A stretch of DNA of 64,000 nucleotides from a virus. Of the stretch, positions 2,022-39,550 are shown piece after piece (within the stretch, counting starts at the first letter, position 1; the number at the start of each line of letters is the position of its first letter). The position numbers were made by a program, and so were the translations under genes. The notes under the pieces were generated by a model that saw only the letters and a program-made list of their open reading frames with translations, had not been told where the DNA came from and did not search any database. Location: the IMG/VR virus record IMGVR_UViG_3300025732_000021, positions 57,868-121,867 of that record; one strand, written 5' to 3'.

Positions 2022-2324
2022 TTATGACAAAAGGTCTTCTGATTGTTTTGGCGCTGTAATAATAATAGCCTTAGAACCTTCCCAACGAACTCTTCCCTTA
2101 CATCCAACATTCCATTTTGTCTCACCGTTATGCTGATTCACAATATCATAAACATATCCATGAATTTCAAATCCACTTGCTAAATTTTCAACTCCATTAA
2201 TAAAAATTCTCCATACCAAAGGATCTTCTGGTTGTGCCTTTGTATTAAACCTTACAGTAATTTCATCATATGGTCTAATCCAACGGTCTTTTACTATTTC
2301 CCAAATATATTTAATTTTATTCAT
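2022..2324 (-). CDS. Small protein of unknown function
   Basis: A 100-residue protein rich in aromatic residues (several Trp and Tyr), with a beta-strand-like pattern in the first two thirds and a C-terminal segment containing AIIITAPK. Its ATG overlaps the stop of the kinase/nucleotidyltransferase gene (2321-3082) by 4 bases, so the two are probably translated together. No domain recognised. Confidence 0.6.
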   Translation of the reverse strand: MNKIKYIWEIVKDRWIRPYDEITVRFNTKAQPEDPLVWRIFINGVENLASGFEIHGYVYDIVNQHNGETKWNVGCKGRVRWEGSKAIIITAPKQSEDLLS

Positions 2325-3082
2325 ATTCCCATTTCCTTACGTTTTTGTGTCGCAGAAATAGCCTGTATTTCTGGAGCAAGTTCAATCTGTTCAATTTTAT
2401 ATCCTACATCACGACCATAAACTATGTTAGTAATATTTGGCAAACGTAGCACCATTGCCCCATCCATAAACTCATCTTTTGAAATATATTCTTTAACTTG
2501 ATCAAATTTAAGCGGATCTTTTGGACTTGTGTTATATGTATTGCGTACCCCAAGAAGCACTTGTTTTGTTCTTTTCCCAGCCTCTTCATACAAAGCATGA
2601 TGGCCTTCATGCCAAGGCTGATATCTACCAAGCATTAATGTTGTAGGTGCTGACCAATCGTGTAAATTAAATTGATTAATGATTACCGATGCTTTTTCAT
2701 TGGCATCCCATTCATGACTAATAAATGCCATATCAAAGTTAGATGGCACTTCAAACATTTTATTAGTATCTTCAAATCTACCAGCCTCAATTGTTTCCAT
2801 ATAAACTAAAATATCTGGCTTACCAAATGCTGCACGAGTTAATTCTGTAGGACAAACAAAATCAACTACTACTGGTGCAACCCCTTGTTTTGCAATAAGA
2901 CGAGCCATCTCACCCATTCGTCTTGCCTGCTCAATCCTATCTTCATGGCTAAAGCCAAGGTCAGAATTTACGGTAGCACGAACCTCATCCGCATTAAGAT
3001 GAATAGCATTAATTCGTTCTTTTAATGCTTTTGCTAACTCTGTCTTACCAGAACCTGGTAATCCTATAATTTGTATAATCAT
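2321..3082 (-). CDS. Bifunctional APS-kinase-like P-loop kinase fused to an HxGH nucleotidyltransferase
   Basis: 253 residues in two domains. The N-terminal domain (about 1-125) has the P-loop GLPGSGKT (7-14) and the segment LNADEVRATVNSDLGFS, which closely follows the APS-kinase pattern (LDGDNVR..LN.DLGFS). The C-terminal domain (about 147-253) has GRYQPWHEGHH, an HxGH nucleotidyltransferase signature as in NadM-type and cytidylyltransferase-like enzymes, and ISATQKRK near the end, matching the ISxTxxR motif. It probably phosphorylates a small molecule and then attaches a nucleotide to it. The substrate cannot be read. A degenerate paralogue lies at 10394-11089. It overlaps both neighbours by 4 bases. 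Confidence 0.8.
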   Translation of the reverse strand: MIIQIIGLPGSGKTELAKALKERINAIHLNADEVRATVNSDLGFSHEDRIEQARRMGEMARLIAKQGVAPVVVDFVCPTELTRAAFGKPDILVYMETIEAGRFEDTNKMFEVPSNFDMAFISHEWDANEKASVIINQFNLHDWSAPTTLMLGRYQPWHEGHHALYEEAGKRTKQVLLGVRNTYNTSPKDPLKFDQVKEYISKDEFMDGAMVLRLPNITNIVYGRDVGYKIEQIELAPEIQAISATQKRKEMGI

Positions 3083-3287: not shown

Positions 3288-3728
3288 TTATACTCTTCCA
3301 ATATGATCACTACAGATTCCAGCCATCTGCATATTTAAAACATCTGCGGTTGGCATTTCTTGATGAACCAAAATACTTTTTGGTGTAACTGGCATACCAG
3401 GGTATGTCCATATATAATGATTAGTAGTTATTGTAAAATCATCTTCTTGGTGCCAAAACGCATTATAATATTTTGGCATTGATAAAACTAAATCTAAGGC
3501 TTCTAAATTTTTACAATGAATCCATAACTTTTTAATATAAGAATTTAAAAAATATATGTCGATCTCATATGTTGGTTTATCATGTCCTAAATACATTTTA
3601 TTATTTACAAACCAAAAATCTATTTCAACATTGTATCCAGCATTTATAGCCTCAGCAATATAATCTGGGGAGTTTTCTCTTGATTCATTTTTACCATATA
3701 GATTACCCCTATGTGATATTTTAATCAT
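3288..3728 (-). CDS. GDPD-like (glycerophosphodiester phosphodiesterase fold) protein
   Basis: The protein (146 residues from the ATG at 3728) starts with ISHRGN, followed by ENSPDYIAEAI, VEIDFW and LGHDKP. This is the order of the GDPD catalytic core: HRG, EN, ExD, then HD. The enzymes hydrolyse glycerophosphodiesters with a bound metal. At under 150 residues it is much shorter than ordinary GDPD enzymes (about 240-300), so it may be a minimal or specialised member. The ATG at 3728, preceded by GGGGA, is preferred over an upstream TTG. It overlaps the end of the RuBisCO-like gene by 8 bases and closes the sugar cassette. Confidence 0.65.
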   Translation of the reverse strand: MIKISHRGNLYGKNESRENSPDYIAEAINAGYNVEIDFWFVNNKMYLGHDKPTYEIDIYFLNSYIKKLWIHCKNLEALDLVLSMPKYYNAFWHQEDDFTITTNHYIWTYPGMPVTPKSILVHQEMPTADVLNMQMAGICSDHIGRV

Positions 3729-4926
3729 TAACAATTCCCCACTTTTCTATAGCAGAAATATATTCTGGACCATAGGACTTATCTATAGCCTGCCTCATGG
3801 CCATAGTGCCCCCTAAAGTGCCACCAGAATGCCCGTGGATGGCTCCTCCTACGTTTGCCATATAGTTTATACCAAACCTTCTGCTTATAGCCTCTACAAG
3901 GCCAGGATGCATTCCGCAACTTAGCGCTGGCACAACATTATTATCATTTAATAAATCTATAGATCTTTTTAAATTATCTTCGTCATCACTTAAATACCCA
4001 CCCCACATACCAGTATGTATCGTATCTACTCCCATTAATGCTGCTAACTTACAAATAACATACCAATCAATTCTAAAATTATGACTAGGATTTGTTAATA
4101 TCTTATCCCCGCTTTTTTGAAAATGCATATATATTGGAAGATCCATTTTTCGTATAGAGTTATATGCTCCAAATCCGCTCCAGAAGTTTACATGTACACC
4201 ATTACCACCATTTTCATATACTGTTTTTACTCTATTTAAAATAGCATGTGGATCAGCATTAATACAATGAGCAAAAACTACCTTTCTTCCAGAATCTGCG
4301 ATAATGTTAGCAATGTGCTCAACTCTTTCTTCTAGCCTACAAAATGTTGGGTTAGATAATATTTCATCTTCTTTAATAAAATCAACGCCACCATCAATTA
4401 ACTCTTTAACTATATATCCTAGTTGTTTAACTGATATTCCAGTTTTAGGTTTTACAATACCGCCTAACAATGGCTTATTTTTTTGTCCAGTTAACTCTCT
4501 TATTCCAGACATACCAAACTTAGGGCCAAGAAAACTCTTTTTTACACTTTCTGGAAATTCAACATCTACCACTCTACATACTTTAAATACATCAATGTCT
4601 AATTGTCCACCCATAATCTGACATAAGAAATGCGAAATACCATCGTTATCCCAATCTGAATTTATTTTTGGAAAACCAATTTTAACAAAACCATTTAGTG
4701 CTAATTTTAATTTTTCTTCATCATCATAAATAACACATGATGACATTTCAAATATATCATCAGTTTCCCAACTATTTCTTTGTTTTGGATTACCAACACT
4801 TTGTCCAATAGCAAGCGCCCATGCAGCATCATTTAATCTACCATGTGAAGGATTGACTTCTATATAATATGTTACAACTATACATCTTTGTTTTTCAGAG
4901 TCGTCTAAGTCTCTATAAAACTTCAT
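3721..4926 (-). CDS. RuBisCO-like protein (RuBisCO large-subunit superfamily)
   Basis: 401 residues, similar in length to archaeal and form IV RuBisCO-like proteins. Recognisable blocks: TYYIEV (19-24); GPKFGMSGIREL (134-145); GGIVKPKTG (155-163), with both active-site lysines (K159, K161); DFIKEDE (182-188), keeping the lysine that is carbamylated in RuBisCO (K185) and both metal ligands (D187, E188); a His at 268 (His294 position); IHTG (303-306, His327 position); and a glycine pair at 360-361 in the phosphate site. Changes from true RuBisCO: Phe in place of Arg295, Tyr311 where loop-6 Lys334 should be, and no Asn at the Asn123 position. It therefore should not fix CO2. Enolisation, isomerisation or decarboxylation of a sugar-acid phosphate is more plausible. 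SD GGAG precedes ATG. It sits between cupin and GDPD-like genes. Confidence 0.85.
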   Translation of the reverse strand: MKFYRDLDDSEKQRCIVVTYYIEVNPSHGRLNDAAWALAIGQSVGNPKQRNSWETDDIFEMSSCVIYDDEEKLKLALNGFVKIGFPKINSDWDNDGISHFLCQIMGGQLDIDVFKVCRVVDVEFPESVKKSFLGPKFGMSGIRELTGQKNKPLLGGIVKPKTGISVKQLGYIVKELIDGGVDFIKEDEILSNPTFCRLEERVEHIANIIADSGRKVVFAHCINADPHAILNRVKTVYENGGNGVHVNFWSGFGAYNSIRKMDLPIYMHFQKSGDKILTNPSHNFRIDWYVICKLAALMGVDTIHTGMWGGYLSDDEDNLKRSIDLLNDNNVVPALSCGMHPGLVEAISRRFGINYMANVGGAIHGHSGGTLGGTMAMRQAIDKSYGPEYISAIEKWGIVND

Positions 4927-5236
4927 ACTTATCTCCTATAATAGATGGAACTTTTACTACTAAAACTGAACAATCTTCTAAAAATATTGGATCTGCTATA
5001 TCTCCTGGATTAAAAACAAAAACGTCTCCAGATTTTAATTCTTTTCCTTGTATTATCATTCTACCAGATACAAGAACATTATATTCTGTTGCAACCTCAT
5101 GGTAATGTTTTGGCCACATTTCTCCAGCCTTATGAGTTAACAAACCAACCTCAAATTTATCTGTTTTTAATAAAGACGGATCAAAGTTTCCTATAATCCA
5201 TCCTCTGGTAAAGTCTTCTATTCTTCTAATTTCCAT
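4913..5236 (-). CDS. Single-domain cupin
   Basis: 107 residues. Cupin motif 1 is visible as PKHYHEVATEYNVLVSG (HxH, then Glu after four residues and Gly six later); motif 2 is around GDVFVFNPGDIADP, with the usual histidine replaced. The two His and the Glu can hold a metal. Single cupins in sugar gene sets often act as isomerases, epimerases or dioxygenases. The gene overlaps the nucleotidyltransferase end by 19 bases and the RuBisCO-like start by 14 bases, so it is co-translated with them and probably works on the same pathway. The reaction cannot be assigned. Confidence 0.75.
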   Translation of the reverse strand: MEIRRIEDFTRGWIIGNFDPSLLKTDKFEVGLLTHKAGEMWPKHYHEVATEYNVLVSGRMIIQGKELKSGDVFVFNPGDIADPIFLEDCSVLVVKVPSIIGDKYEVL

Positions 5237-5946
5237 AGTTTCTCCATATATAGTTCTAAATCAGAAGGTACTCCAACAGCATTATGTTGAAAAGAAGGTA
5301 TGTGATAAATTCCAATTTTTTTACCATCTTTAATCATTGAATTATAAGTAGGTCCTACATAAAATTCTCCATTATATCTTTCGTTATTTAATATCATTTT
5401 GCTTGCACTATCAACAAAATCTTTTCCATGTTTCCAATAATGTATTCCATTTAATGATATATCACTTATAATTTCTTTTTCTTTTATTTCTAAAACTAAT
5501 CCATTTTTATTTATTTTAGCATAACTATTTTTATCTGTATTTGCGGTATAAGTTACAATCATTCCATCATATTTTGAATTACGTGCTACCTGTAAAAATA
5601 AATCAGAATCCCACCACATTATTTGATCAGAGTTAGCAATTATGAGTTCTTCATCATTATTGATAAAATCTTTTGCCATCAAGCATGTTTCTGCTGGTCC
5701 ATTTGTTAATTTATCAATCTTAATAATATTACATGTTGGCTCAATGTTTTTTAATGTTGAATATAATTCATCAAAAAATATGTTATCTCTAACTACAAAA
5801 TTATACTTTCCTTTTATAGATAAAGAATTTATGGCATGCTGTATCATAGAAATTCCATTTATTTTTATTAATGGCTTAGTTGTTTTATATATGTCTACTG
5901 GAAACCTACTACCAAGTCCAGCAATTGGAATAAGTATATTAGTCAT
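5218..5946 (-). CDS. Sugar-phosphate nucleotidyltransferase (GT-A-like NTP transferase)
   Basis: 242 residues of the NTP_transferase fold. The N-terminal signature IPIAGLGSRF (6-15), followed by the KP of TTKPLIKING, is the nucleotide-binding loop and substrate lysine of this family. NSDQIMWWDSD is in the position of the metal-binding Asp region. Such enzymes make CDP-, UDP-, GDP- or ADP-activated sugars or alditols from NTP and the phosphate. It is 8 bases overlapped with the GT61 gene and runs into the cupin and RuBisCO-like genes. I infer that it activates the product made by those two and that the GT61 enzymes transfer it. Confidence 0.8.
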   Translation of the reverse strand: MTNILIPIAGLGSRFPVDIYKTTKPLIKINGISMIQHAINSLSIKGKYNFVVRDNIFFDELYSTLKNIEPTCNIIKIDKLTNGPAETCLMAKDFINNDEELIIANSDQIMWWDSDLFLQVARNSKYDGMIVTYTANTDKNSYAKINKNGLVLEIKEKEIISDISLNGIHYWKHGKDFVDSASKMILNNERYNGEFYVGPTYNSMIKDGKKIGIYHIPSFQHNAVGVPSDLELYMEKLWKLEE

Positions 5947-6901
5947 ATATTTTTATAAACCTTTCAAGTTCTTTTTCTATTTTATCATATTTTCTAGTGA
6001 CATTTGGTACTGATACATATATTTTTTCAGAAAATAAAGAAGATATTAGATAAAAATGAAAATGAAATTCTATATTCTGTTTAAGTAATTGTGTTGTACT
6101 TAACTCTATAATGGTTGTATTTTTTCTCATAAAAAGCAAATTAGTGAGTCCTGATCCAGATAATGAAACTATAATTTTTGCTTTATCAAAATATTTTATT
6201 TGATCTTCAATGCTATTAAACATTTCTGGGGTACATATTTCAAATCCATTGGCTCTTAATAAATTCTCTAAATATTCTTCATTATCAATTCTTAAATCAT
6301 CTTTAAATTCTAATTTATCTATTTCTTCTTGTGACATTTGGTGTAATTGTGTTGCCATCATGTTTTGTTTTTTTTGTCTAGAAACATATATTTTTTTGTC
6401 ATTAGATATAGAAAGATCTCGATATCCTTCAACCATCTCATCAAGACAGCGAATAAATTCTCCACATAACTCTGTCTCTTCGTAATAATAAAAATTTCTA
6501 ACTATTGGGGGATAAATAGAATGTGTTTGCACAACGCTATACGGAATACCATATTTTCTTAATACATTTATTACAAATAATCCACTATTATGAAAAATAT
6601 CTTTTTCTTTGCTTGGATGTAATAGTATTACCTCAATGTTTTTATCTTGTTTATATTCATATAAAATTGGACCAAGTACGTGAAAAAATATATGAAAAAA
6701 TGCTGACTCAAATCTAACGACTATCCTTTTTCTATTAGTATCATCTAAAAAGTGATCTCCGTTATTATGTTGATTAAATGTATAGCCCTTAAATTCTTCA
6801 TGAGTTATCTTAGTAATAATTGGCATAGAAGCATTAAATCCATCTTCAATTTTAAATAAGCCATCATAATATATTGGCTTTCTTGGTTCCATTCTTATCA
6901 T
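5939..6901 (-). CDS. GT61-family (DUF563) glycosyltransferase, copy 2
   Basis: 320 residues. The C-terminal half carries the GT61 pattern: KIYVSRQK, LRIDNEEYLENLL, SIEDQIKYFDKAKIIVS, then SGSGLTNLLFM and IIEL. In many GT61 enzymes the glycine motif is GAHGAGLTN; here Ser replaces the His. It is paralogous to the next gene upstream (6898-7827), with the same motif order. GT61 enzymes move sugars from nucleotide donors onto glycans or proteins. Start is the ATG of an ATGA overlap at 6901, preceded by GGAG. Acceptor unknown; likely a capsule-type glycan or a virion protein. Confidence 0.78.
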   Translation of the reverse strand: MIRMEPRKPIYYDGLFKIEDGFNASMPIITKITHEEFKGYTFNQHNNGDHFLDDTNRKRIVVRFESAFFHIFFHVLGPILYEYKQDKNIEVILLHPSKEKDIFHNSGLFVINVLRKYGIPYSVVQTHSIYPPIVRNFYYYEETELCGEFIRCLDEMVEGYRDLSISNDKKIYVSRQKKQNMMATQLHQMSQEEIDKLEFKDDLRIDNEEYLENLLRANGFEICTPEMFNSIEDQIKYFDKAKIIVSLSGSGLTNLLFMRKNTTIIELSTTQLLKQNIEFHFHFYLISSLFSEKIYVSVPNVTRKYDKIEKELERFIKIYD

Positions 6902-7827
6902 AAATACTCCAAAAATTTTCTTTTTTCAAAATATTCTATTATATGCTCTGATTTTCTTTCATGTGGAATAGTAATAAGATTATGTTTTTTTGCCCAAGCA
7001 AAACCTTCATAAAATGGATGCACTTGTTGTGTTCCACCTATTAATACTGGGGTTTGCAATTCCACCACAATTTGTGATGGCTGCAAAAACATCATATTAG
7101 CCATGCCAGAACCAGATGGACATATCATTGCCTTTACACTGTCAAAATAAATAATTTGTTCTTCAAAACTTGCAAAATCTTCTGGATAAACTATGTCAAA
7201 ACCTTTTTGCTTAAAATATTCAATTAATACCTCTTCATCTTCTATCCTTAAATCATTTTTTATTCTAAAAGAATTTTGATCTTTTCCATTAAAAATACTA
7301 TTTTCTGCTTTTGGTGGAACTTTTGATCTTGCTAAATAGGCAACTTTATTAGGAGATTTAACTCTATTTATTTTAGTACTACAATAGTCATACACTTCTT
7401 TAAAAACAAAAGAAGAAAAAGGTATAACTGACATATATGTTGCATCTTTAACTACAATTGACTCTTCTTTTAAATAAACTAATTCATATTTAATTTTTTT
7501 ATCATCTAAAAGTTTTAAGATAAACTTAGCATGATTTATTTCTTTGTCTTCTTCACGATAATCTAATCCAAACATTATGACAAAATAAGCATCATTATTT
7601 ATTCTATGATAGTGTAAAATGTACTGAACCATATTAAAAAATGCATGTAAAAAATTTTTTTGCCATAAGACTAAATGAAGATCAGGTTTTTCAATTAGTC
7701 TTTCAGAAAATTCCTCATTATCTTCTAACTGTCCCATAATTGGCCATACATAACCTAATTTTGGAACACTTATTCTATGTAGTCCCTCTAGTTTATTTGG
7801 CTGCTTCCAATCTCCGTATACAAACAT
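6898..7827 (-). CDS. GT61-family (DUF563) glycosyltransferase, copy 1
   Basis: 309 residues with the same architecture as its downstream neighbour: AYLARSK, LRIEDEEVLIEYF, SFEEQIIYFDSVKAMIC, SGSGMANMMFL and VVEL. The N-terminal half has an FxH-x-FFN segment around LHAFFNMVQYI, also seen in copy 2. Copies 1 and 2 are diverged paralogues, suggesting that they add two different or successive sugars. It is the first gene of the cassette that runs to 3288 and begins one base after the WhiB stop. No signal peptide or membrane span, so it acts in the cytoplasm. Confidence 0.78.
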   Translation of the reverse strand: MFVYGDWKQPNKLEGLHRISVPKLGYVWPIMGQLEDNEEFSERLIEKPDLHLVLWQKNFLHAFFNMVQYILHYHRINNDAYFVIMFGLDYREEDKEINHAKFILKLLDDKKIKYELVYLKEESIVVKDATYMSVIPFSSFVFKEVYDYCSTKINRVKSPNKVAYLARSKVPPKAENSIFNGKDQNSFRIKNDLRIEDEEVLIEYFKQKGFDIVYPEDFASFEEQIIYFDSVKAMICPSGSGMANMMFLQPSQIVVELQTPVLIGGTQQVHPFYEGFAWAKKHNLITIPHERKSEHIIEYFEKRKFLEYL

Positions 7828-8112
7828 TTATTTTTCATTTGTCAGGATAGTCCAGACATTGCTCCAATCTTTTTCTGATCTATGGGAATTAAATTCTTTA
7901 GAAATATCACCATTTTCTAAATAAACTCCACCCCAAACTCCCCATTCTTTTTGAGAAACACCTACAGAAAAACAAGTTTTTAAGACTGGACAACTTAAAC
8001 ATAATTTGTCTATTGCTTCTCTAAAAGACTCAGATTCTTCATATTTATCAAAAAATATATTTGTGTCATATCCAAGGCAACTGGCATTATCTTTCCATTT
8101 TATTTTATGCAT
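7828..8112 (-). CDS. WhiB-family Fe-S transcriptional regulator
   Basis: 94 residues with the four conserved cysteines at 12, 38, 41 and 47 (C-x25-C-x2-C-x5-C) and the turn motif GVWGG (58-62), which together define WhiB-like (Wbl) proteins. These bind a [4Fe-4S] cluster and the principal sigma factor and occur only in Actinobacteria and their phages, so this gene is the best single pointer to the host. The C-terminal basic stretch is short compared with host WhiBs. It lies just upstream of the glycosyltransferase cassette and overlaps the gene before it by 8 bases. Likely role: reprogramming host transcription. Confidence 0.88.
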   Translation of the reverse strand: MHKIKWKDNASCLGYDTNIFFDKYEESESFREAIDKLCLSCPVLKTCFSVGVSQKEWGVWGGVYLENGDISKEFNSHRSEKDWSNVWTILTNEK

Positions 8113-9991: not shown

Positions 9992-10394
9992 TTTTTGACT
10001 TTTCTCTTTGTTTTGCAAGTACTGAAAAATCTTTAATTTTTGTTTCTCCCATGTAAGACCATGCATAACCATTTTCTATCATATAATCATTGACAGAAAT
10101 TGTATCACCATCTACATAAAGCCAGCCTAAAATACGACCATATTTTTCTGAAGAATCTGGTTTTTCTGTTTTAATTACTATTTCCTTGGCGTCTTTAAGT
10201 TTATTTTTTAGGTATTCTTTTGCCTCAAGTCCTAACGCTTTTTCAAATTTATCTGATGTTCTTGATTCTGGAGTATCTATTCCCGCAAGTCTAACCCTTT
10301 GAGAAAAAGATACATTAAATCCTAAATCAATATCAACATCAATAGTATCTCCATCCACAACACCAGTAATTTTTTTTACTCTATATATATACAT
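9978..10394 (-). CDS. Thermonuclease (staphylococcal nuclease-like, SNase)
   Basis: 138 residues, the usual size of a single SNase domain. The first strand pair carries VVDGDTIDVDIDLG; then RVRLAGIDTPES gives the catalytic Arg and metal-binding Asp/Glu region (Arg35, Asp40, Glu43 of S. aureus nuclease), and EKYGRILGWLYVDG the second catalytic Arg (Arg87). These Ca2+-dependent enzymes cut DNA and RNA. No signal peptide is present, so it should act inside the cell, perhaps in host DNA breakdown. The ATG abuts the gene at 10394. Confidence 0.85.
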   Translation of the reverse strand: MYIYRVKKITGVVDGDTIDVDIDLGFNVSFSQRVRLAGIDTPESRTSDKFEKALGLEAKEYLKNKLKDAKEIVIKTEKPDSSEKYGRILGWLYVDGDTISVNDYMIENGYAWSYMGETKIKDFSVLAKQREKSKNATK

Positions 10395-11089
10395 TAAACA
10401 ACCTCCACTATATTTGGCAATACAATTATATTAGCATCTGGAATATCTTTTAAAATTAATTCCTTTACCTGTCTTAAAGACAATTTATCTTCATCAGTCA
10501 TACCCATACAATGCTTAATTCCTATGACTACATTTCTTGTTTCAGATAATTCTTTATATTTTTGAAAATCTTCTTTTGTCCATGGTTGAAATTTTCCTAC
10601 CATTAATGTTTGCTCTGGTTTCCAGTCAAAAGTTTGATATTCTTTAATTACACTAAAAGCCCTAGTTGGCAATGCATCTAGATATTCATTTCCAGTGTTT
10701 GTAATTCTAAAGTCATACTCATTTTCGTTTGGTTCTTCCCATGCAATAGTTTTGCCAAATTTATCAGTAAATTCTTTTTTGTCTGTAGTATCAACCCATA
10801 CAGAAATATCTGGAAATTTATTTATTTCAGATAAATGCATGTAACCACTGATGTCTCTATATTGATCTCTTGCTTCTTTAGTTGGGAAATATCCACTAAC
10901 TACAATTGATGAATTATAGTCTTTTGTAAAAAATATAGATATTGTTCTAAGCCACCTAGCATACTGTGCTTGTAGTTCTGCCATAGGCAAATCTGTATCT
11001 AAAACATGCCAAGAATTTGTACGTTCAGCATATGCTATAGAAATCTCTGTTCTTGTTTTTTCATCCATTCCAAAAAATTGAACTATCAT
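10394..11089 (-). CDS. Degenerate paralogue of the kinase/nucleotidyltransferase (probable pseudoenzyme)
   Basis: 231 residues that mirror the two-domain protein at 2321-3082. The N-terminus MIVQFFGMDEKTRTEIS matches the kinase start, but the P-loop has become GMDEKTRTE and cannot bind ATP in the usual way. The C-terminal domain keeps TLMVGKFQPW and the spacing of LSLRQVKELIL, but the HxGH motif is replaced (WTKED) and the ISATxxR tail is gone. The reading frame is intact, so it is not a decayed pseudogene; a regulatory or structural role is likelier. It overlaps the small zinc protein by 4 bases. Confidence 0.7.
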   Translation of the reverse strand: MIVQFFGMDEKTRTEISIAYAERTNSWHVLDTDLPMAELQAQYARWLRTISIFFTKDYNSSIVVSGYFPTKEARDQYRDISGYMHLSEINKFPDISVWVDTTDKKEFTDKFGKTIAWEEPNENEYDFRITNTGNEYLDALPTRAFSVIKEYQTFDWKPEQTLMVGKFQPWTKEDFQKYKELSETRNVVIGIKHCMGMTDEDKLSLRQVKELILKDIPDANIIVLPNIVEVV

Positions 11090-11844: not shown

Positions 11845-11873
11845 ATTGTATCATTTGATTTGAGATATGACAA
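11845..11873 (-). promoter_or_regulatory. Sigma70-type promoter (TTGTCA-N17-TACAAT, extended -10)
   Basis: Minus strand: TTGTCA (11873-11868), 17-base spacer, TACAAT (11850-11845), with TG one base before the -10 (TGATACAAT). It lies at the end of the RsmI-like gene and would start a transcript roughly 10 bases before the AGGAGG of the DUF2061 gene. The TGATACAAT core is the same as in the promoter at 25536. Confidence 0.6.
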
Positions 11874-12570
11874 GTGTGTAATGTGAGTAAAAGGTATGTA
11901 TATTGTTTTTCCATCCATTTATTATGTCAAAATTAAATGGAAAAAGTCTATATGGCTTTATAAATTCTAGAGCATTAGTAGTCTTCCCCCTTATAATTTT
12001 CTGTGTTGGCTTACTAAGATCAATACATATGGCAATATCTCTATATGGAAAAACAGTTGCTATATCCTCTAAATGTTTATTTAAAAATGGAATACATATC
12101 AGCACTATAGGACAATTAATATTAGATAATGTTTCTAAAAATTTAACTGTATCAGTATTTGGTATTCTTCCTCCAAAATAGAATTGTCCACTATCTCCAT
12201 CAAATCCTGAAAAAAATAAAGATTGTAATATTGCATTTGGACCAGGAATTAATTCAATTTCTATGTTGTTCTCTATTAAAGATTGTATTAATGGTGAAGC
12301 AAAATCTTGTATATTTGGATATCCATCATTTGACACAACAAGTATATTTTTGTTATTTTTAATACCATTTAAAATTATTTCTAAAGAATTAGAGTTATTA
12401 TATTCATATATATTGTTAATATAAACACCATTAATATCGCAAAAATTTTTGAAAACTTTTTCTGTTTCAACAATTGCTATATCTGTTTGATTTAAATAAT
12501 TTTTAAATGCTATAGCAATATGATCATTATTGCCTATTGGCATAGCAGCAAATACAACTTTTTTGTTCAT
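11851..12570 (-). CDS. RsmI-like tetrapyrrole-methylase-fold SAM methyltransferase
   Basis: 239 residues. It matches the order of RsmI, the SAM-dependent enzyme that 2'-O-methylates C1402 of 16S rRNA: AMPIGN near the N-terminus (RsmI: TPIGN), an acidic ETE segment, ILVVSNDGYPNIQDF (RsmI: VSDAGTPGISDPG), IELIPGPNAILQSLFFSGF (RsmI: PGPSAVxxALxxSG) and QFYFGGRIP (FxFxGFLP). It is shorter than bacterial RsmI (about 280) and the DAGTP motif is altered to NDGYP, so a different substrate, including a small molecule, is possible. It overlaps the carbamoyltransferase stop by 4 bases. Confidence 0.7.
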   Translation of the reverse strand: MNKKVVFAAMPIGNNDHIAIAFKNYLNQTDIAIVETEKVFKNFCDINGVYINNIYEYNNSNSLEIILNGIKNNKNILVVSNDGYPNIQDFASPLIQSLIENNIEIELIPGPNAILQSLFFSGFDGDSGQFYFGGRIPNTDTVKFLETLSNINCPIVLICIPFLNKHLEDIATVFPYRDIAICIDLSKPTQKIIRGKTTNALEFIKPYRLFPFNFDIINGWKNNIHTFYSHYTLVISQIK

Positions 12571-14003
12571 CGTACTATTTTAGTATTGTATGCTTTTTCC
12601 CATTCTAAAATATCATTTTCATCATTTAATAATGGCTGACCTTTAATATTTAAACTTGTATTAAGTAATATTGGGATTCCAGTGACAGCATACCATTCCG
12701 ATAATAGATTGTATAGTCCTGGATGTTGATTTTTATTTACAGTTTGAACTCTAGATGTACCGTCTTTATGTACTACAGACGGTATAAGTTCTGGCTTTAA
12801 ACATTTAGGAGTATACTGCATATAAGGAGAAGTATAATTCATATCAAACCATTTTGATGCATGCTCTTCTAAAATTACTGGAGCAAAAGGCCTGAATAAT
12901 TCTCTTTTTTTAATTAAATTAACCTTATCTTTAATGTCAGGATCCCTTGGATCTGCCAAAATACTTCTGTTTCCAAGTGCTCTTGGTCCGTATTCTGCAC
13001 GTCCAGTTGCAACTGCTGCAATTTTATTTCTTATTAATTCTGCCATAATTTTACTGACTGGATACTCTCCACCAAGATCGTAACCTAAATATGGATGCTC
13101 CCAATTTAAATGATTTCCATATGCTGCTGCTGCTGCGCCAAGAGAGGATCCAGCGTCGCCTGGATTTGGCATAATCCAAACATCATCAAACATCCTCCAT
13201 AACATTGTGTTTGCTGCACAATTAAGGGCGCATCCACCCATAAAAACAAGATTCTTTTTACCAGTTAATTTTTGAGCCATGGCCATGAAATTAACTAATC
13301 TATCCTCATATATTTTTTGAACTGCTGCTGCTATATCAAACTTGGCTTGTTCATCTATTATTTCATTCCAATCTAAAATACCATTATGGAATCCATATTT
13401 TTGGTCATCTATAGATGAAAAGTATTCTTTTACCTTGTTATAATATCTTGTCCAGTCACCATATGCAGCCATGCCCATCATAATATACTCTTCTTCATTT
13501 GGTTTTAATCCAACTAATTGAGTAAAGGCAGAATAGAATAGCCCAAAACTAAATGGATGATTTTTTTTATAGACCTGCTTAATATATGATCCCTGTCCAG
13601 TCCAGATTGTTGATGTATTATATTCCCCTATGGCATCTAAAACAACTATTACTGCATCATTAAATTTACTCGTGTAATAACCTGCTGCTGCATGAGAATG
13701 GTGATGGCTAAAAGATTCTCTTGGTATCCATCTTAAATCATTTCTTTCAAGATAATAAGGTTTTCCTCCTCCGAAGCCACCCCTAGTCATTATTCTTATT
13801 TTTTTTAACCAACGATTTTCATAATATGCTATTTGATCTGGCTTACCATACGAAAGTGCTTGATCTATTAGTTCGTCGTTTGTAAACCAATCATTTTTTT
13901 CTTTACTGTATCTTTCAGCATGGCCAGCAAACAAAATGCTACCATTATCTATTAATGATACAGAAGCATCATGTGTTGTTTCATTAATTCCTAAAATTTT
14001 CAT
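12567..14003 (-). CDS. NodU/TobZ-family carbamoyltransferase
   Basis: 478 residues from the ATG at 14003, preceded by AGAGGA. N-terminal Kae1-like domain: MKILGINETTHDASVSLI, SFSHHHSHAAAGYYTS (HxxxHAxxAY metal/adenylate motif), VVLDAIGEY, FMGGCALNC and NPGDAGSSLGAA. C-terminal YrdC-like part: GRAEYGPRALGNRSILADPR, FRPFAPVI, LLNTSLNIKGQPL. Members make carbamoyl adenylate from carbamoyl phosphate and ATP and carbamoylate sugar hydroxyls (NodU, TobZ, CmcH). In a phage it could modify a glycan or, as proposed for some phage clusters, a DNA base. It overlaps the SGNH gene by 20 bases. Confidence 0.88.
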   Translation of the reverse strand: MKILGINETTHDASVSLIDNGSILFAGHAERYSKEKNDWFTNDELIDQALSYGKPDQIAYYENRWLKKIRIMTRGGFGGGKPYYLERNDLRWIPRESFSHHHSHAAAGYYTSKFNDAVIVVLDAIGEYNTSTIWTGQGSYIKQVYKKNHPFSFGLFYSAFTQLVGLKPNEEEYIMMGMAAYGDWTRYYNKVKEYFSSIDDQKYGFHNGILDWNEIIDEQAKFDIAAAVQKIYEDRLVNFMAMAQKLTGKKNLVFMGGCALNCAANTMLWRMFDDVWIMPNPGDAGSSLGAAAAAYGNHLNWEHPYLGYDLGGEYPVSKIMAELIRNKIAAVATGRAEYGPRALGNRSILADPRDPDIKDKVNLIKKRELFRPFAPVILEEHASKWFDMNYTSPYMQYTPKCLKPELIPSVVHKDGTSRVQTVNKNQHPGLYNLLSEWYAVTGIPILLNTSLNIKGQPLLNDENDILEWEKAYNTKIVR

Positions 14004-14673
14004 AATTAATCCTCTTCTTAAATTCATTATACCAAATTAAATGTGCTGCAGGTCCAGGATGATGTTTATCATCACCAAGAATTTCACCACCATAATAATC
14101 TATATCGCTTTTATTAATTTCAAAAAAAGTATCAAAATTATTTAAAAAATCAAATTCATTTTTAGATGACCAGGAAGATGATAGAAGTTTTATATTATTA
14201 AAATAACAAAAAATTTCTAAAGATTTGTAAAAATTATAAACAACTTTATCAATATGATCTTTAATTATATATCTTCCATCCCTATGTATTGGTGGCAATA
14301 ATATAAAAATATAATCTGGATTTCCATATAAATTTATATATTTATATATATTTGATATTATTTCTATTGGCGAACCGCCTGGAAGAGAAACATTAAAAAA
14401 TCCAGAAGAATTTTTGAAATCAGAATAAACTTTATATGCCCATGTATCTTCTATATTAACACCTATACCACAAGTTATAGAACAGCCAGCAAATAAAATA
14501 TGTTCGCCATTATGATTTTTTATAAATTCATCTGATCTTAATCCATGTGAGTTTAATTTATATATTACATTACTGTTTGAAATATTTTTTCTATAATCTG
14601 GCATACCATCTTTATGCCAAAAAACTGGAGAGATAGTGGTGTTTTTTGTTAAATAATTTTCATAAAATTCCAT
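13984..14673 (-). CDS. SGNH/GDSL-type hydrolase
   Basis: 229 residues. ILFAGCSITCGIGV carries the block I nucleophile serine in a GxSxTxG setting; SLPGGSPIEI gives the block II glycine; FILLPP lies in the region of block III; and GDDKHHPGPAAH holds the Asp-x-x-His dyad of block V. Such enzymes are esterases or acyl-transferring hydrolases, often deacetylating or deacylating sugars. The place between a prolyl-hydroxylase-type oxygenase and a carbamoyltransferase suggests glycan tailoring. No signal peptide. The stop overlaps the carbamoyltransferase start by 20 bases. Confidence 0.72.
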   Translation of the reverse strand: MEFYENYLTKNTTISPVFWHKDGMPDYRKNISNSNVIYKLNSHGLRSDEFIKNHNGEHILFAGCSITCGIGVNIEDTWAYKVYSDFKNSSGFFNVSLPGGSPIEIISNIYKYINLYGNPDYIFILLPPIHRDGRYIIKDHIDKVVYNFYKSLEIFCYFNNIKLLSSSWSSKNEFDFLNNFDTFFEINKSDIDYYGGEILGDDKHHPGPAAHLIWYNEFKKRINYENFRN

Positions 14674-37788: not shown

Positions 37789-37817
37789 AGTATACATTAA
37801 AAGGTAACATCTGTCAA
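37789..37817 (-). promoter_or_regulatory. Consensus promoter TTGACA-N17-TATACT for the replication operon
   Basis: Minus strand: TTGACA (37817-37812), 17 bases, TATACT (37794-37789). The -35 is in the last codons of the halogenase. Leader of about 16 bases, with AAAGGAG before the ATG at 37766. Confidence 0.75.
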
Positions 37818-39254
37818 GTGCTTAGATAAATACTCTTTAACATCTATTCCTTCAAAGTTTTTTGCTTCATTATACAGTTTATCATATGCTTGCTTAGTTT
37901 GCAAATCTGAATACAAATTAGATCTATTAAACTGTCCAGTATTTACATATGTAGTCATCCATGACTGATATCCAAATGTTTTATTAGTATTTGAAATAAC
38001 GTATTGTGATATATAATCTTTATCTAATTCTCTTAATACATTTTCTGCATATTCTGGCATTTTATTTTCTATTTTAAAGTTTTTCCAAAATTCAGAATTA
38101 TCTTTGTCAGTTAAATAATGTATATAAATAAATCCTAATAGTTCTTTATTTTTTTGTAATATCAAATCATTATATTTTTCAATAACTGTTTCATTATTAT
38201 TTAATGTATATTCAGTTAAAAATTCTGGAGACGTAAACAATCTTAACATGTATATAGTAAGCATAATAGACGTAGCATGTAATGGTTCAAAGAATCCCGC
38301 AGCAAGCCCAACAGATAAACAATTTTTAACCCATGGTGTTTTATAATATCCTGGTTTAAAATCAAAATGATTAACTACTTTGACATCTTCTTTTTTAAAA
38401 AGAGTATAAATTTCTTCTAATGCATTTTCCTTAGATGTATATTTTGGATCGTATACATATCCGCATCCATATCTATGTTTTAACGGTGTCTTCCATACCC
38501 AACCATATTTCATTGCTATAATTTCTGTACACATAGAATAATTTTCATCTTGTGGTAAAAAGAATGCTAATGCTTTAGTACAAGGTAAACTTTCTGATGT
38601 ATCAACCCATTCAGATTGTAAGTGATGCCCAACAAATAAATTTTTAAATCCAGTAGCATCTATTAAAAAATCACATTGATAAGAACCAGACTCACAGTGT
38701 ATAACAGTAATATTTCCATTAAACTCTCCAACATGTTTAATTTTATCATCTATTATTTTTATTCCTCTTTTTGTTGACTCTTCTTTAAAAAATTCTGCTA
38801 ATTTAATAGCATCTAAATGCCATCCAATATATGGCCAAGATAGTTTATTTTTATTTGTAGCACTAAGTCCTTTATTAATATCATCTAAATTATTATTATT
38901 TGACATAACTTCTATAGATGCTAACTTAAATAATTCTAATTGTTCTTCTTTTGTAAGATCATTATCAGATACATAATTTATTAATGGATGAAAGTATGAA
39001 TCTTGTCTTTTAGACCATCCTATAAATTTTATACCGTTCTTTAATGTTGACCCAGTATGCTCTATAAATTTATCTATTGGTAATTCTAATTCATCAAAAA
39101 TATAAGCAAAGTTAGTTGTGGTTCCTTCTCCAGCACCCAGCACCCCAACTCTAGAACTATCTATTACCGTTATGTCTGCATGTGGCAATCTTTTATTAAT
39201 TGTTAAAGCAGCAAGATATCCAGCAGTACCGCCTCCAGCAACAACTACTTTCAA
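37797..39254 (-). CDS. Flavin-dependent halogenase (tryptophan-halogenase family), TTG start
   Basis: 485 residues from the TTG at 39254, which overlaps the upstream stop in TTGA and has GGAG eight bases before; an ATG 17 codons earlier would overlap more. Motifs: VVVAGGGTAGYLAAL (FAD), VLGAGEGTT, TLKNGIKFIGW with catalytic-type Lys72, FLIDATGFKNLFVG, and YGWVWKTPL (a GWxWxxP version of the GWxWxIP motif), then GLAAGFFEPLHATS. The GWxWxIP motif excludes simple monooxygenases. Sequence is quite different from the halogenase at 1-812. A cyanophage halogenase (VirX1) is known to be an active enzyme; the substrate here is unknown. Confidence 0.88.
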   Translation of the reverse strand: MKVVVAGGGTAGYLAALTINKRLPHADITVIDSSRVGVLGAGEGTTTNFAYIFDELELPIDKFIEHTGSTLKNGIKFIGWSKRQDSYFHPLINYVSDNDLTKEEQLELFKLASIEVMSNNNNLDDINKGLSATNKNKLSWPYIGWHLDAIKLAEFFKEESTKRGIKIIDDKIKHVGEFNGNITVIHCESGSYQCDFLIDATGFKNLFVGHHLQSEWVDTSESLPCTKALAFFLPQDENYSMCTEIIAMKYGWVWKTPLKHRYGCGYVYDPKYTSKENALEEIYTLFKKEDVKVVNHFDFKPGYYKTPWVKNCLSVGLAAGFFEPLHATSIMLTIYMLRLFTSPEFLTEYTLNNNETVIEKYNDLILQKNKELLGFIYIHYLTDKDNSEFWKNFKIENKMPEYAENVLRELDKDYISQYVISNTNKTFGYQSWMTTYVNTGQFNRSNLYSDLQTKQAYDKLYNEAKNFEGIDVKEYLSKHLTDVTF

Positions 39255-39550
39255 AGAATAACTCCAAAATATTTTGCAATATAAAGTATTGCAAGGATTG
39301 ACCATAAAATATTAAACCAAATTAGGGTAGGTATTGTTTTAACAGTAGATGACCAAATAAGTCCAATACTTGATACTAATGCAAATATATAAAACCACCA
39401 TACACTCACATCAAACAGTAATCCTGGTAAAATAATTATTGCTTTGGCAACAAAAGCAAAAAATTCTACAATGTTTGCCTTTGTCCAATATTCTTTATGA
39501 CCCATGGTTTTTAAAGCCTGTAACCATTCCATATGATTTTTATTTTTCAT
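39251..39550 (-). CDS. Small polytopic membrane protein
   Basis: 99 residues with three hydrophobic spans (about 29-45, 49-65 and 72-96) separated by short charged or polar loops. The N-terminal 25 residues are amphipathic (MKNKNHMEWLQALKTMG). It overlaps the primase stop by 4 bases and its TGA overlaps the halogenase TTG. It might help deliver or export the halogenated product, or simply be a neighbour. Function unknown. Confidence 0.62.
   Translation of the reverse strand: MKNKNHMEWLQALKTMGHKEYWTKANIVEFFAFVAKAIIILPGLLFDVSVWWFYIFALVSSIGLIWSSTVKTIPTLIWFNILWSILAILYIAKYFGVIL

What the first reader, a model, noticed from the sequence alone, without database searches (positions are those of the whole stretch)
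3288..7827. Phage glycan cassette built around a RuBisCO-like protein
Five overlapping or coupled types of gene run in one direction: two GT61 glycosyltransferases, a sugar nucleotidyltransferase, a cupin, a RuBisCO-like protein and a GDPD-like protein. All junctions overlap by 4-19 bases, so they are made together. Known: RuBisCO-like proteins act as enolases, isomerases, decarboxylases or transcarboxylases on phosphorylated sugar compounds, and GT61 transfers sugars. Inference: the RuBisCO-like protein, cupin and GDPD-like protein make an unusual sugar or sugar acid, which the nucleotidyltransferase activates and the GT61 pair attaches to a virion protein or the host surface. I know of no described phage pathway of this design.
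Basis: partly seen in the sequence, partly recalled or inferred. Interest (0 to 1): 0.87.

Follow-up and report, generated by a model that had tools for sequence, protein, structure and literature searches.

The report
Phage RuBisCO-like enzyme in sugar cassette
Hundreds of uncultivated phages carry a relative of the CO2-fixing enzyme RuBisCO that has lost the residues needed to fix carbon and sits in a conserved set of sugar-activating genes; in a sister set of phage cassettes its place is taken by an ordinary sugar-phosphate isomerase, so it probably reshapes a sugar for the phage or host surface.

Summary
The cassette is real and conserved, and it is a gene family, not a one-off. On the minus strand, 7827 to 3288, six genes overlap by 4-19 bases: GT61, GT61, sugar nucleotidyltransferase (NTP), cupin, RuBisCO-like protein (RLP) and a minimal 146-aa GDPD-like barrel. 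The window lies in a tailed-phage contig. RLP relatives occur in about 300 IMG/VR contigs; the cupin or NTP directly abuts the RLP in 64 of 72 testable viral loci. The GT61 pair is not core: only the nearest relatives have it. The RLP forms its own clade. It keeps the lysine/Mg2+ enolisation site but has lost carboxylase residues (Y for K334, Q-K for H294-R295, G for N123, N-P for T65-W66), so it is not a CO2-fixing RuBisCO. Key new observation: 79 of 80 other phage loci carry the same NTP fused to ribose-5-phosphate isomerase B (RpiB), followed by the same cupin (77) and GDPD-like gene (67), and none has the RLP; none of 80 cupin-centred loci, 77 with RLP, has RpiB. RLP and RpiB look interchangeable, pointing to a ketose-phosphate isomerase/epimerase feeding nucleotide-sugar synthesis. 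Substrate, product and target are inferred. Published viral 'rbcL' carbon-fixation genes should be rechecked against this family.

The parts
6898..7827 (-). GT61-family glycosyltransferase b (309 aa); lineage-specific member of the operon
   Evidence: PF04577 E=4.3e-15; homologue only in 5 closest loci; fast-evolving, 54-64% aa identity against 83-88% for RLP, NTP and cupin
5939..6901 (-). GT61-family glycosyltransferase a (320 aa)
   Evidence: PF04577 E=1e-17; lineage-specific
5218..5946 (-). Sugar nucleotidyltransferase, NTP (242 aa); core gene
   Evidence: PF00483, phrog_3980; in 95 of 101 RLP loci; best PDB relative 4evw; homologue fused to RpiB in other phages
4913..5236 (-). Small cupin (107 aa); core gene
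   Evidence: phrog_24762; invariant H44, E51, N53, G58, S98, D102, K103 and near-invariant H46; in 74 of 101 RLP loci
3721..4926 (-). RuBisCO-like protein (401 aa); core gene
   Evidence: PF00016 E=2.9e-38; AF2 pLDDT 93, Foldseek best hit 2d69 with TM 0.87; family-wide active-site signature; own clade
3288..3728 (-). GDPD-like minimal TIM barrel (146 aa from ATG 3728; the ORF extends to TTG 3734); core gene
   Evidence: phrog_34507; invariant H6 R7 E35 D37 H49 H71 K73; AF2 pLDDT 97; weak match to solved GDPDs by profile and fold
7828..8112 (-). WhiB-like regulator abutting the first GT61 gene; possible head of the transcription unit and host clue
   Evidence: PF02467 E=1e-11; conserved in the 5 nearest relatives

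Best explanation
The core NTP-cupin-RLP-GDPD set is a portable phage cassette that makes a nucleotide-activated sugar for glycan decoration. The RLP is not a carboxylase. It most likely enolises a singly phosphorylated ketose (pentulose 5-phosphate type) on a lysine/Mg2+ site and isomerises or epimerises it. The NTP then activates that sugar phosphate, the cupin does a further isomerisation or epimerisation step, and lineage-specific transferases (GT61 here, phrog_13607 proteins in many other phages, perhaps LicD in Legionella) attach it. The GDPD-like barrel acts on a phosphodiester in the pathway. Shown: cassette, conservation, fold, active-site changes, exchange with RpiB. Inferred: the isomerase reaction, the pentulose substrate, the order of steps, the phosphodiester link, the glycan target.
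For: Conserved order in viral loci: cupin or NTP abuts RLP in 64 of 72, NTP abuts cupin in 61 of 72, GDPD-like nearby in 66 of 77; NTP 95, GDPD 82 and cupin 74 of 101 loci. Distant bacteria keep RLP beside NTP, cupin and/or GDPD (L096, L097, L098, SAR11 L088-L095, Nanoarchaeia L092). Exchange with RpiB: 80 phage loci with RpiB: 79 NTP-RpiB fusions, 77 with the same cupin, 67 with GDPD-like, 0 with RLP; 80 cupin-centred loci: 77 with RLP, 0 with RpiB; no RpiB in 48 RLP contigs. The RpiB domain looks intact: 105 bits to a solved RpiB (1o1x) with the C-x-T-G, HN and GGRH motifs aligned. Active site: K201/D203/E204, K175 and K177 equivalents invariant; C5-phosphate site R295/H327/S379 conservatively K/H/S; C1-phosphate site T65/W66/K334 all replaced, by N/P/Y, which suits a monophosphate rather than ribulose bisphosphate. 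An RLP acting as a pentulose-phosphate isomerase is known (R. rubrum/R. palustris Rlp1, PMC5893883). LicD beside RLP-NTP in three Legionella genomes.
Against: No biochemistry. The RpiB swap could mean two different sugars entering the same downstream machinery, not the same reaction. No phosphomutase is in the cassette, while RmlA-type NTPs usually use sugar 1-phosphates. The mutual exclusion was scored only within 4-6 kb flanks, and each set of 80 was chosen by similarity to its query. K271 and H304 vary in some members. The LicD link rests on one genus.
Confidence: 0.55

Rival explanations
1. The RLP feeds the cassette but by another RuBisCO-superfamily reaction (decarboxylation, retro-aldol, dehydration or oxygenase cleavage of a sugar-acid phosphate), as in the apionate and four-carbon-acid RLPs; this is the first reader's sugar-acid version.
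For: The RLP superfamily is catalytically diverse; OiaX is among the NCBIfam hits (147 bits). Q at position 42 and G at 107 (the N123 position) are shared with the OiaX group.
Against: Far below the OiaX cut-off (147 against 700 bits); the tree separates the two clades; OiaX-type RLPs keep H294-R295 and K334 and lose K177, the reverse of this family; no four-carbon acid sugar kinase was recognised next to it; replaceable by an aldose-ketose isomerase.
Confidence: 0.22
2. A true RuBisCO used by the phage to fix CO2 during infection (the usual reading of viral rbcL annotations).
For: Fold and top HMM hits are RuBisCO form III; the metal site is intact.
Against: N123, H294, R295, K334, T65, W66 and E60 equivalents are all replaced, most of them invariantly across the family; score 198 against the form III cut-off of 497; no phosphoribulokinase or other Calvin gene was recognised in the neighbourhoods; it sits among glycan genes.
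Confidence: 0.02
3. A methionine-salvage (MTA-isoprenoid shunt) pair: RLP 1,3-isomerase plus cupin methylsulfurylase, as in Rhodospirillum rubrum.
For: RLP next to a cupin; Rlp1 is a 5-methylthioribulose-1-phosphate 1,3-isomerase and its partner is a cupin (PMC5893883).
Against: The constant partner is a sugar nucleotidyltransferase and the setting is glycosyltransferases, epimerases and methyltransferases; the same cupin also occurs without any RLP, next to NTP-RpiB. MtnP and MtnA were not searched for specifically.
Confidence: 0.03
4. Host-derived surface-polysaccharide genes carried passively or mis-binned, with no phage role.
For: Homologues sit in SAR11 chromosomes next to lepA-like and hflKC-like genes and in Legionella, Azospirillum and others.
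Against: About 300 viral contigs against 21 loci in 84,980 genomes and at most 2 positives in surveys of 197-399 genomes per group; the window contig carries terminase, DNA polymerase, DnaB and tail genes; T4-type gp23 in six other contigs; low dN/dS between phages.
Confidence: 0.05

Closest known systems
RuBisCO-like proteins (form IV), e.g. MtnW, Rlp1 (DeepYkr), OiaX
   Same: Two-domain RuBisCO fold, carbamylatable lysine and Mg2+ ligands, several carboxylase residues lost; pentulose-phosphate isomerisation has a precedent in Rlp1 (PMC5893883)
   Different: Separate clade (SH-aLRT 100) with its own invariant signature GQSxGNPxxR, MGG, KEDE, QKSG, GGY, SCG; partner genes make nucleotide sugars; found mostly in phages
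IV-GOS RLP clade / 'new groups' of RuBisCO homologues in Global Ocean Sampling data (PMC1821046; clade named in PMC10173188)
   Same: Marine metagenomic RuBisCO homologues of unknown function; plausibly includes this family
   Different: I could not obtain those sequences, so identity is untested; neither passage I read mentions a phage cassette
Viral rbcL auxiliary metabolic genes (PMC12607003, PMC8506154, PMC12615777)
   Same: RuBisCO large-subunit homologues in virus contigs; the landfill study places its protein among 'RbcL-like' proteins and also saw the annotation in random IMG/VR viruses
   Different: Those are mostly presented as CO2-fixation genes; this family lacks carboxylase residues. 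Canonical form I and form II motifs gave zero hits in viral contigs although they matched 25 and 8 control loci. The soil study reports an active rbcL1, so not every report need be this family
RpiB (ribose-5-phosphate isomerase B)
   Same: Occupies the same slot, fused to the same NTP beside the same cupin and GDPD-like gene
   Different: Unrelated fold (own knowledge); no sequence relation to the RLP
GDPD (glycerophosphodiester phosphodiesterase)
   Same: HRG, E-x-D and HD motifs of the barrel's first half; nearest solved folds are GDPDs
   Different: Only 146 aa with shortened loops and helices; TM about 0.5; no Pfam hit

Membership tests
RuBisCO superfamily (fold) | RuBisCO N- and C-terminal domains, fold match | tested here: met
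   PF00016 and PF02788 over cut-off; TM 0.87 to 2d69
RuBisCO superfamily (fold) | Carbamate lysine K201 with D203, E204 and catalytic K175 | tested here: met
   K185, D187, E188, K159 invariant
True RuBisCO (forms I-III) | K334 loop-6 lysine, H294, R295, N123, E60, T65, W66 | tested here: not met
   Replaced by Y311, Q270, K271, G107, G41, N46, P47 in the window; nearly all invariant in the family
True RuBisCO (forms I-III) | NCBIfam curated cut-off | tested here: not met
   198 bits against 497 for TIGR03326
RuBisCO-like protein (form IV), broad sense | RuBisCO homologue lacking carboxylase residues, outside forms I-III | tested here: met
   labelled MtnW and IV-Photo references were not in the tree
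OiaX / four-carbon-acid RLP | Curated cut-off and shared clade | tested here: not met
   147 of 700 bits; separate clade
IV-GOS RLP clade | Clusters with the published GOS sequences | not testable with these tools
   Reference sequences not held; the 2007 review I looked up is not in the library
MTA-isoprenoid shunt (Rlp1 + cupin) | RLP beside methylsulfurylase cupin with MtnP and MtnA | tested here: inconclusive
   A cupin is present but is also found without RLP; MtnP/MtnA not searched specifically
GT61 glycosyltransferase | PF04577 over cut-off | tested here: met
   65 and 57 bits against 27
Sugar nucleotidyltransferase (NTP_transferase) | PF00483 over cut-off and G-x-G-x-R-F motif | tested here: met
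   23.7 against 21.2 bits; G10 G12 R14 F15 invariant; nucleotide and sugar specificity unknown
Cupin | Motif 1 metal ligands H-x-H-x4-E | tested here: met
   H44 and E51 invariant, H46 at least 90%
Cupin | Motif 2 histidine | tested here: not met
   The window sequence has P-G-D-I-A-D there; Pfam below cut-off
GDPD | HRG, E-x-D, HD catalytic motifs | tested here: met
   H6 R7 E35 D37 H49 invariant, D50 at least 90%
GDPD | Full-size barrel and Pfam PF03009 | tested here: not met
   No Pfam hit; 146 aa; TM about 0.5

The most novel reading that the evidence does not exclude
A new RuBisCO-fold sugar-phosphate isomerase or epimerase, interchangeable with RpiB, drives an undescribed phage-borne pathway to a nucleotide-activated pentose or pentulose attached to glycans, possibly as a phosphodiester; many viral 'rbcL' genes reported as carbon fixation belong to it.
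Probability: 0.35. Interest if true: 0.87.

Novelty: new variant of a known kind. Interest (0 to 1): 0.74.

Why it matters
It would give a first function to a large orphan RuBisCO clade living mainly in viruses, extend RuBisCO-fold chemistry to nucleotide-sugar synthesis, and show two unrelated enzymes swapping in one cassette, which makes the reaction directly testable. It also cautions against reading viral rbcL annotations as carbon fixation: canonical form I and II motifs gave no hit in 2.9 million viral contigs, while this family without carboxylase residues is in about 300.

Tried and rejected
INPHARED tblastn with the RLP: no match. Foldseek of the RLP against BFVD: only generic TIM-barrel hits, TM about 0.3-0.4. 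LicD as a general partner: present beside RLP only in three Legionella, one hit among 48 viral contigs. T4-type gp23: in 6 of 48 contigs, not in the window contig, so the cassette is not tied to one phage type. Search for related loci with form I RuBisCO: nothing. Papers on a phage RLP with glycosyltransferases: none relevant. CO2 fixation and apionate decarboxylation were rejected on active-site and tree evidence.
Full report
WHAT IS THERE. The window is bases 57,868-121,867 of a 121,867-base IMG/VR virus contig. The six ORFs exist exactly as described, on the minus strand from 7827 to 3288, overlapping by 4, 8, 19, 14 and 14 bases (the last overlap is 8 if the GDPD-like gene starts at the ATG at 3728). 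A WhiB-like gene abuts the first GT61 gene. The contig is a tailed phage: terminase, DNA polymerase, DnaB-type helicase and tail proteins. WhiB proteins are characteristic of Actinomycetota (own knowledge), so that is the likely host group.

FAMILY ASSIGNMENTS. Pfam and NCBIfam place the RLP in the RuBisCO superfamily but far below every curated cut-off for a known function. The AlphaFold model (pLDDT 93) matches archaeal RuBisCO with TM 0.87. The NTP belongs with RmlA/GlmU-type nucleotidyltransferases; its nearest solved relative, 4evw, is named only as a nucleoside-diphosphate-sugar pyrophosphorylase. The cupin has the first metal motif but not the second histidine. The GDPD-like protein is a compact barrel of 146 residues (pLDDT 97) carrying the HRG, E-x-D and HD motifs in all 47 aligned relatives, or nearly all for the last D; solved GDPDs are its closest matches by profile and by fold.

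RELATIVES. A scan of 2.9 million viral contigs found 227 relatives with the single protein and 297 with the family alignment; the best 80 were kept each time. In 84,980 prokaryote species, 21 loci were found, in SAR11, Legionella, Azospirillum, Elusimicrobia, Verrucomicrobia, Nanoarchaeia and others. Surveys of 197-399 genomes per group gave one or two positives each, including the genome used as centre. No relative was found in 50,697 phage records and no RuBisCO fold in the viral structure library. The family is therefore mainly known from uncultivated viruses. Some of the larger contigs are T4-like.

THE CORE. In viral loci with enough flank, a cupin or NTP directly abuts the RLP in 64 of 72, NTP abuts cupin in 61 of 72, and the GDPD-like gene is close by in 66 of 77. 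Over all 101 loci: NTP 95, GDPD 82, cupin 74, phrog_13607/DUF7796 protein 56. The GT61 pair occurs only in the five nearest relatives, so the transferases vary while the core stays. RLP, NTP and cupin are 83-88% identical between these relatives, GT61 52-64%. Distant bacteria and an archaeon keep RLP with NTP, and often cupin or GDPD, in other orders. In three Legionella species the RLP-NTP pair lies next to a LicD gene; LicD proteins transfer phosphorylated alcohols from CDP donors (own knowledge).

NOT A CARBOXYLASE. Across 99 family proteins the lysine and acid ligands of the metal site and both active-site lysines 175 and 177 are invariant or nearly so. K334 is tyrosine, H294 is glutamine, R295 is lysine (89 of 99), N123 is glycine, and the E60-T65-W66 segment is GQSxGNPxxR. 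The C5-phosphate pocket is conserved in kind (K, H, S) while the C1-phosphate pocket is rebuilt, which I read as a substrate with one phosphate; this is inference. In a maximum-likelihood tree with forms I-III and the apionate and four-carbon-acid RLPs, the family is one clade with SH-aLRT 100. Labelled MtnW and IV-Photo references are missing from that tree, and two long reference branches are unreliable.

THE SWAP WITH RpiB. In cultured cyanophages Bellamy and SynMITS9220M01 the homologue of this NTP is fused to RpiB and followed by the same cupin, a phrog_13607 protein and the GDPD-like gene. Searching viral contigs with the RpiB domain gave 80 loci: 79 fusions to NTP, 77 with the cupin, 67 with the GDPD-like gene, 48 with phrog_13607, none with RLP. 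Searching with the cupin alignment gave 80 loci: 77 with RLP, none with RpiB. RpiB is absent from 48 RLP-bearing virus contigs. The RpiB domain keeps the catalytic-site motifs of solved RpiB enzymes. Two unrelated enzymes thus alternate in one cassette; the simplest reading is that they do the same or an equivalent step, aldose-ketose isomerisation or epimerisation of a sugar phosphate. A RuBisCO-like protein acting as a pentulose-phosphate isomerase is already known from methionine salvage (PMC5893883), so the chemistry is plausible.

MECHANISM. Most likely: host ketose phosphate -> RLP (or RpiB) isomer -> NTP gives NDP-sugar -> cupin adjusts it -> variable transferases attach it to a glycan, with the GDPD-like barrel acting on a phosphodiester. 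The steps after the isomerase, their order, the sugar and the target are inference. Because RpiB and the cupin occur together, the cupin is not the step that RLP replaces.

LITERATURE. The GOS study saw groups of RuBisCO homologues outside all known forms (PMC1821046), and a review lists a IV-GOS clade (PMC10173188); the present family may include them, untested. Several virome papers report viral rbcL as carbon-fixation genes (PMC8506154, PMC12615777), and one places its protein among RbcL-like proteins (PMC12607003). In viral contigs, motifs of form I and form II RuBisCO gave no match, though they matched 25 and 8 control loci. Form III was not tested. I therefore suggest, without having tested their sequences, that some such reports are this family.

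VERDICT. It is a new RLP variant in a new setting, with one strong and cheaply testable functional clue.

Noticed in passing
window 7828-8112 (-): WhiB-like gene (PF02467) directly before the first GT61 gene; suggests an actinobacterial host for this phage.
   Followed up: partly
window 37797-39305 (-): Tryptophan-halogenase-type flavoprotein (PF04820 E=2.7e-88, phrog_2928) in a phage; substrate unknown.
   Followed up: no
window 12567-14027 (-): NodU/NolO-like carbamoyltransferase (PF16861/PF02543, phrog_1601), another possible glycan- or nucleoside-modifying gene.
   Followed up: no
window 2321-3082 and 10394-11089 (-): APS-kinase-like P-loop protein with a C-terminal nucleotidyltransferase-like part (phrog_10255, phrog_395) and a possible relative that clusters with it; role unknown.
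   Followed up: no
window 11851-12570 (-): Tetrapyrrole/SAM-dependent methylase family protein (PF00590 E=2.4e-9) in a phage.
   Followed up: no
L031-L044 (e.g. L040 9241-11935): A phage subgroup follows NTP-cupin-RLP with an APH-like kinase, a 3-dehydroquinate-synthase-family protein and a short-chain dehydrogenase; possibly a cyclitol pathway.
   Followed up: partly
L016 11390-12106; L095 9953-10732; L107 4684-5412: phrog_13607/DUF7796-like proteins of unknown function recur with the NTP/GDPD core with or without RLP; candidates for the transferase.
   Followed up: partly
L022, L066, L107, L109: HAD (beta-phosphoglucomutase-like) domain fused to a nucleotidyltransferase in phages carrying GDPD-like genes.
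   Followed up: partly
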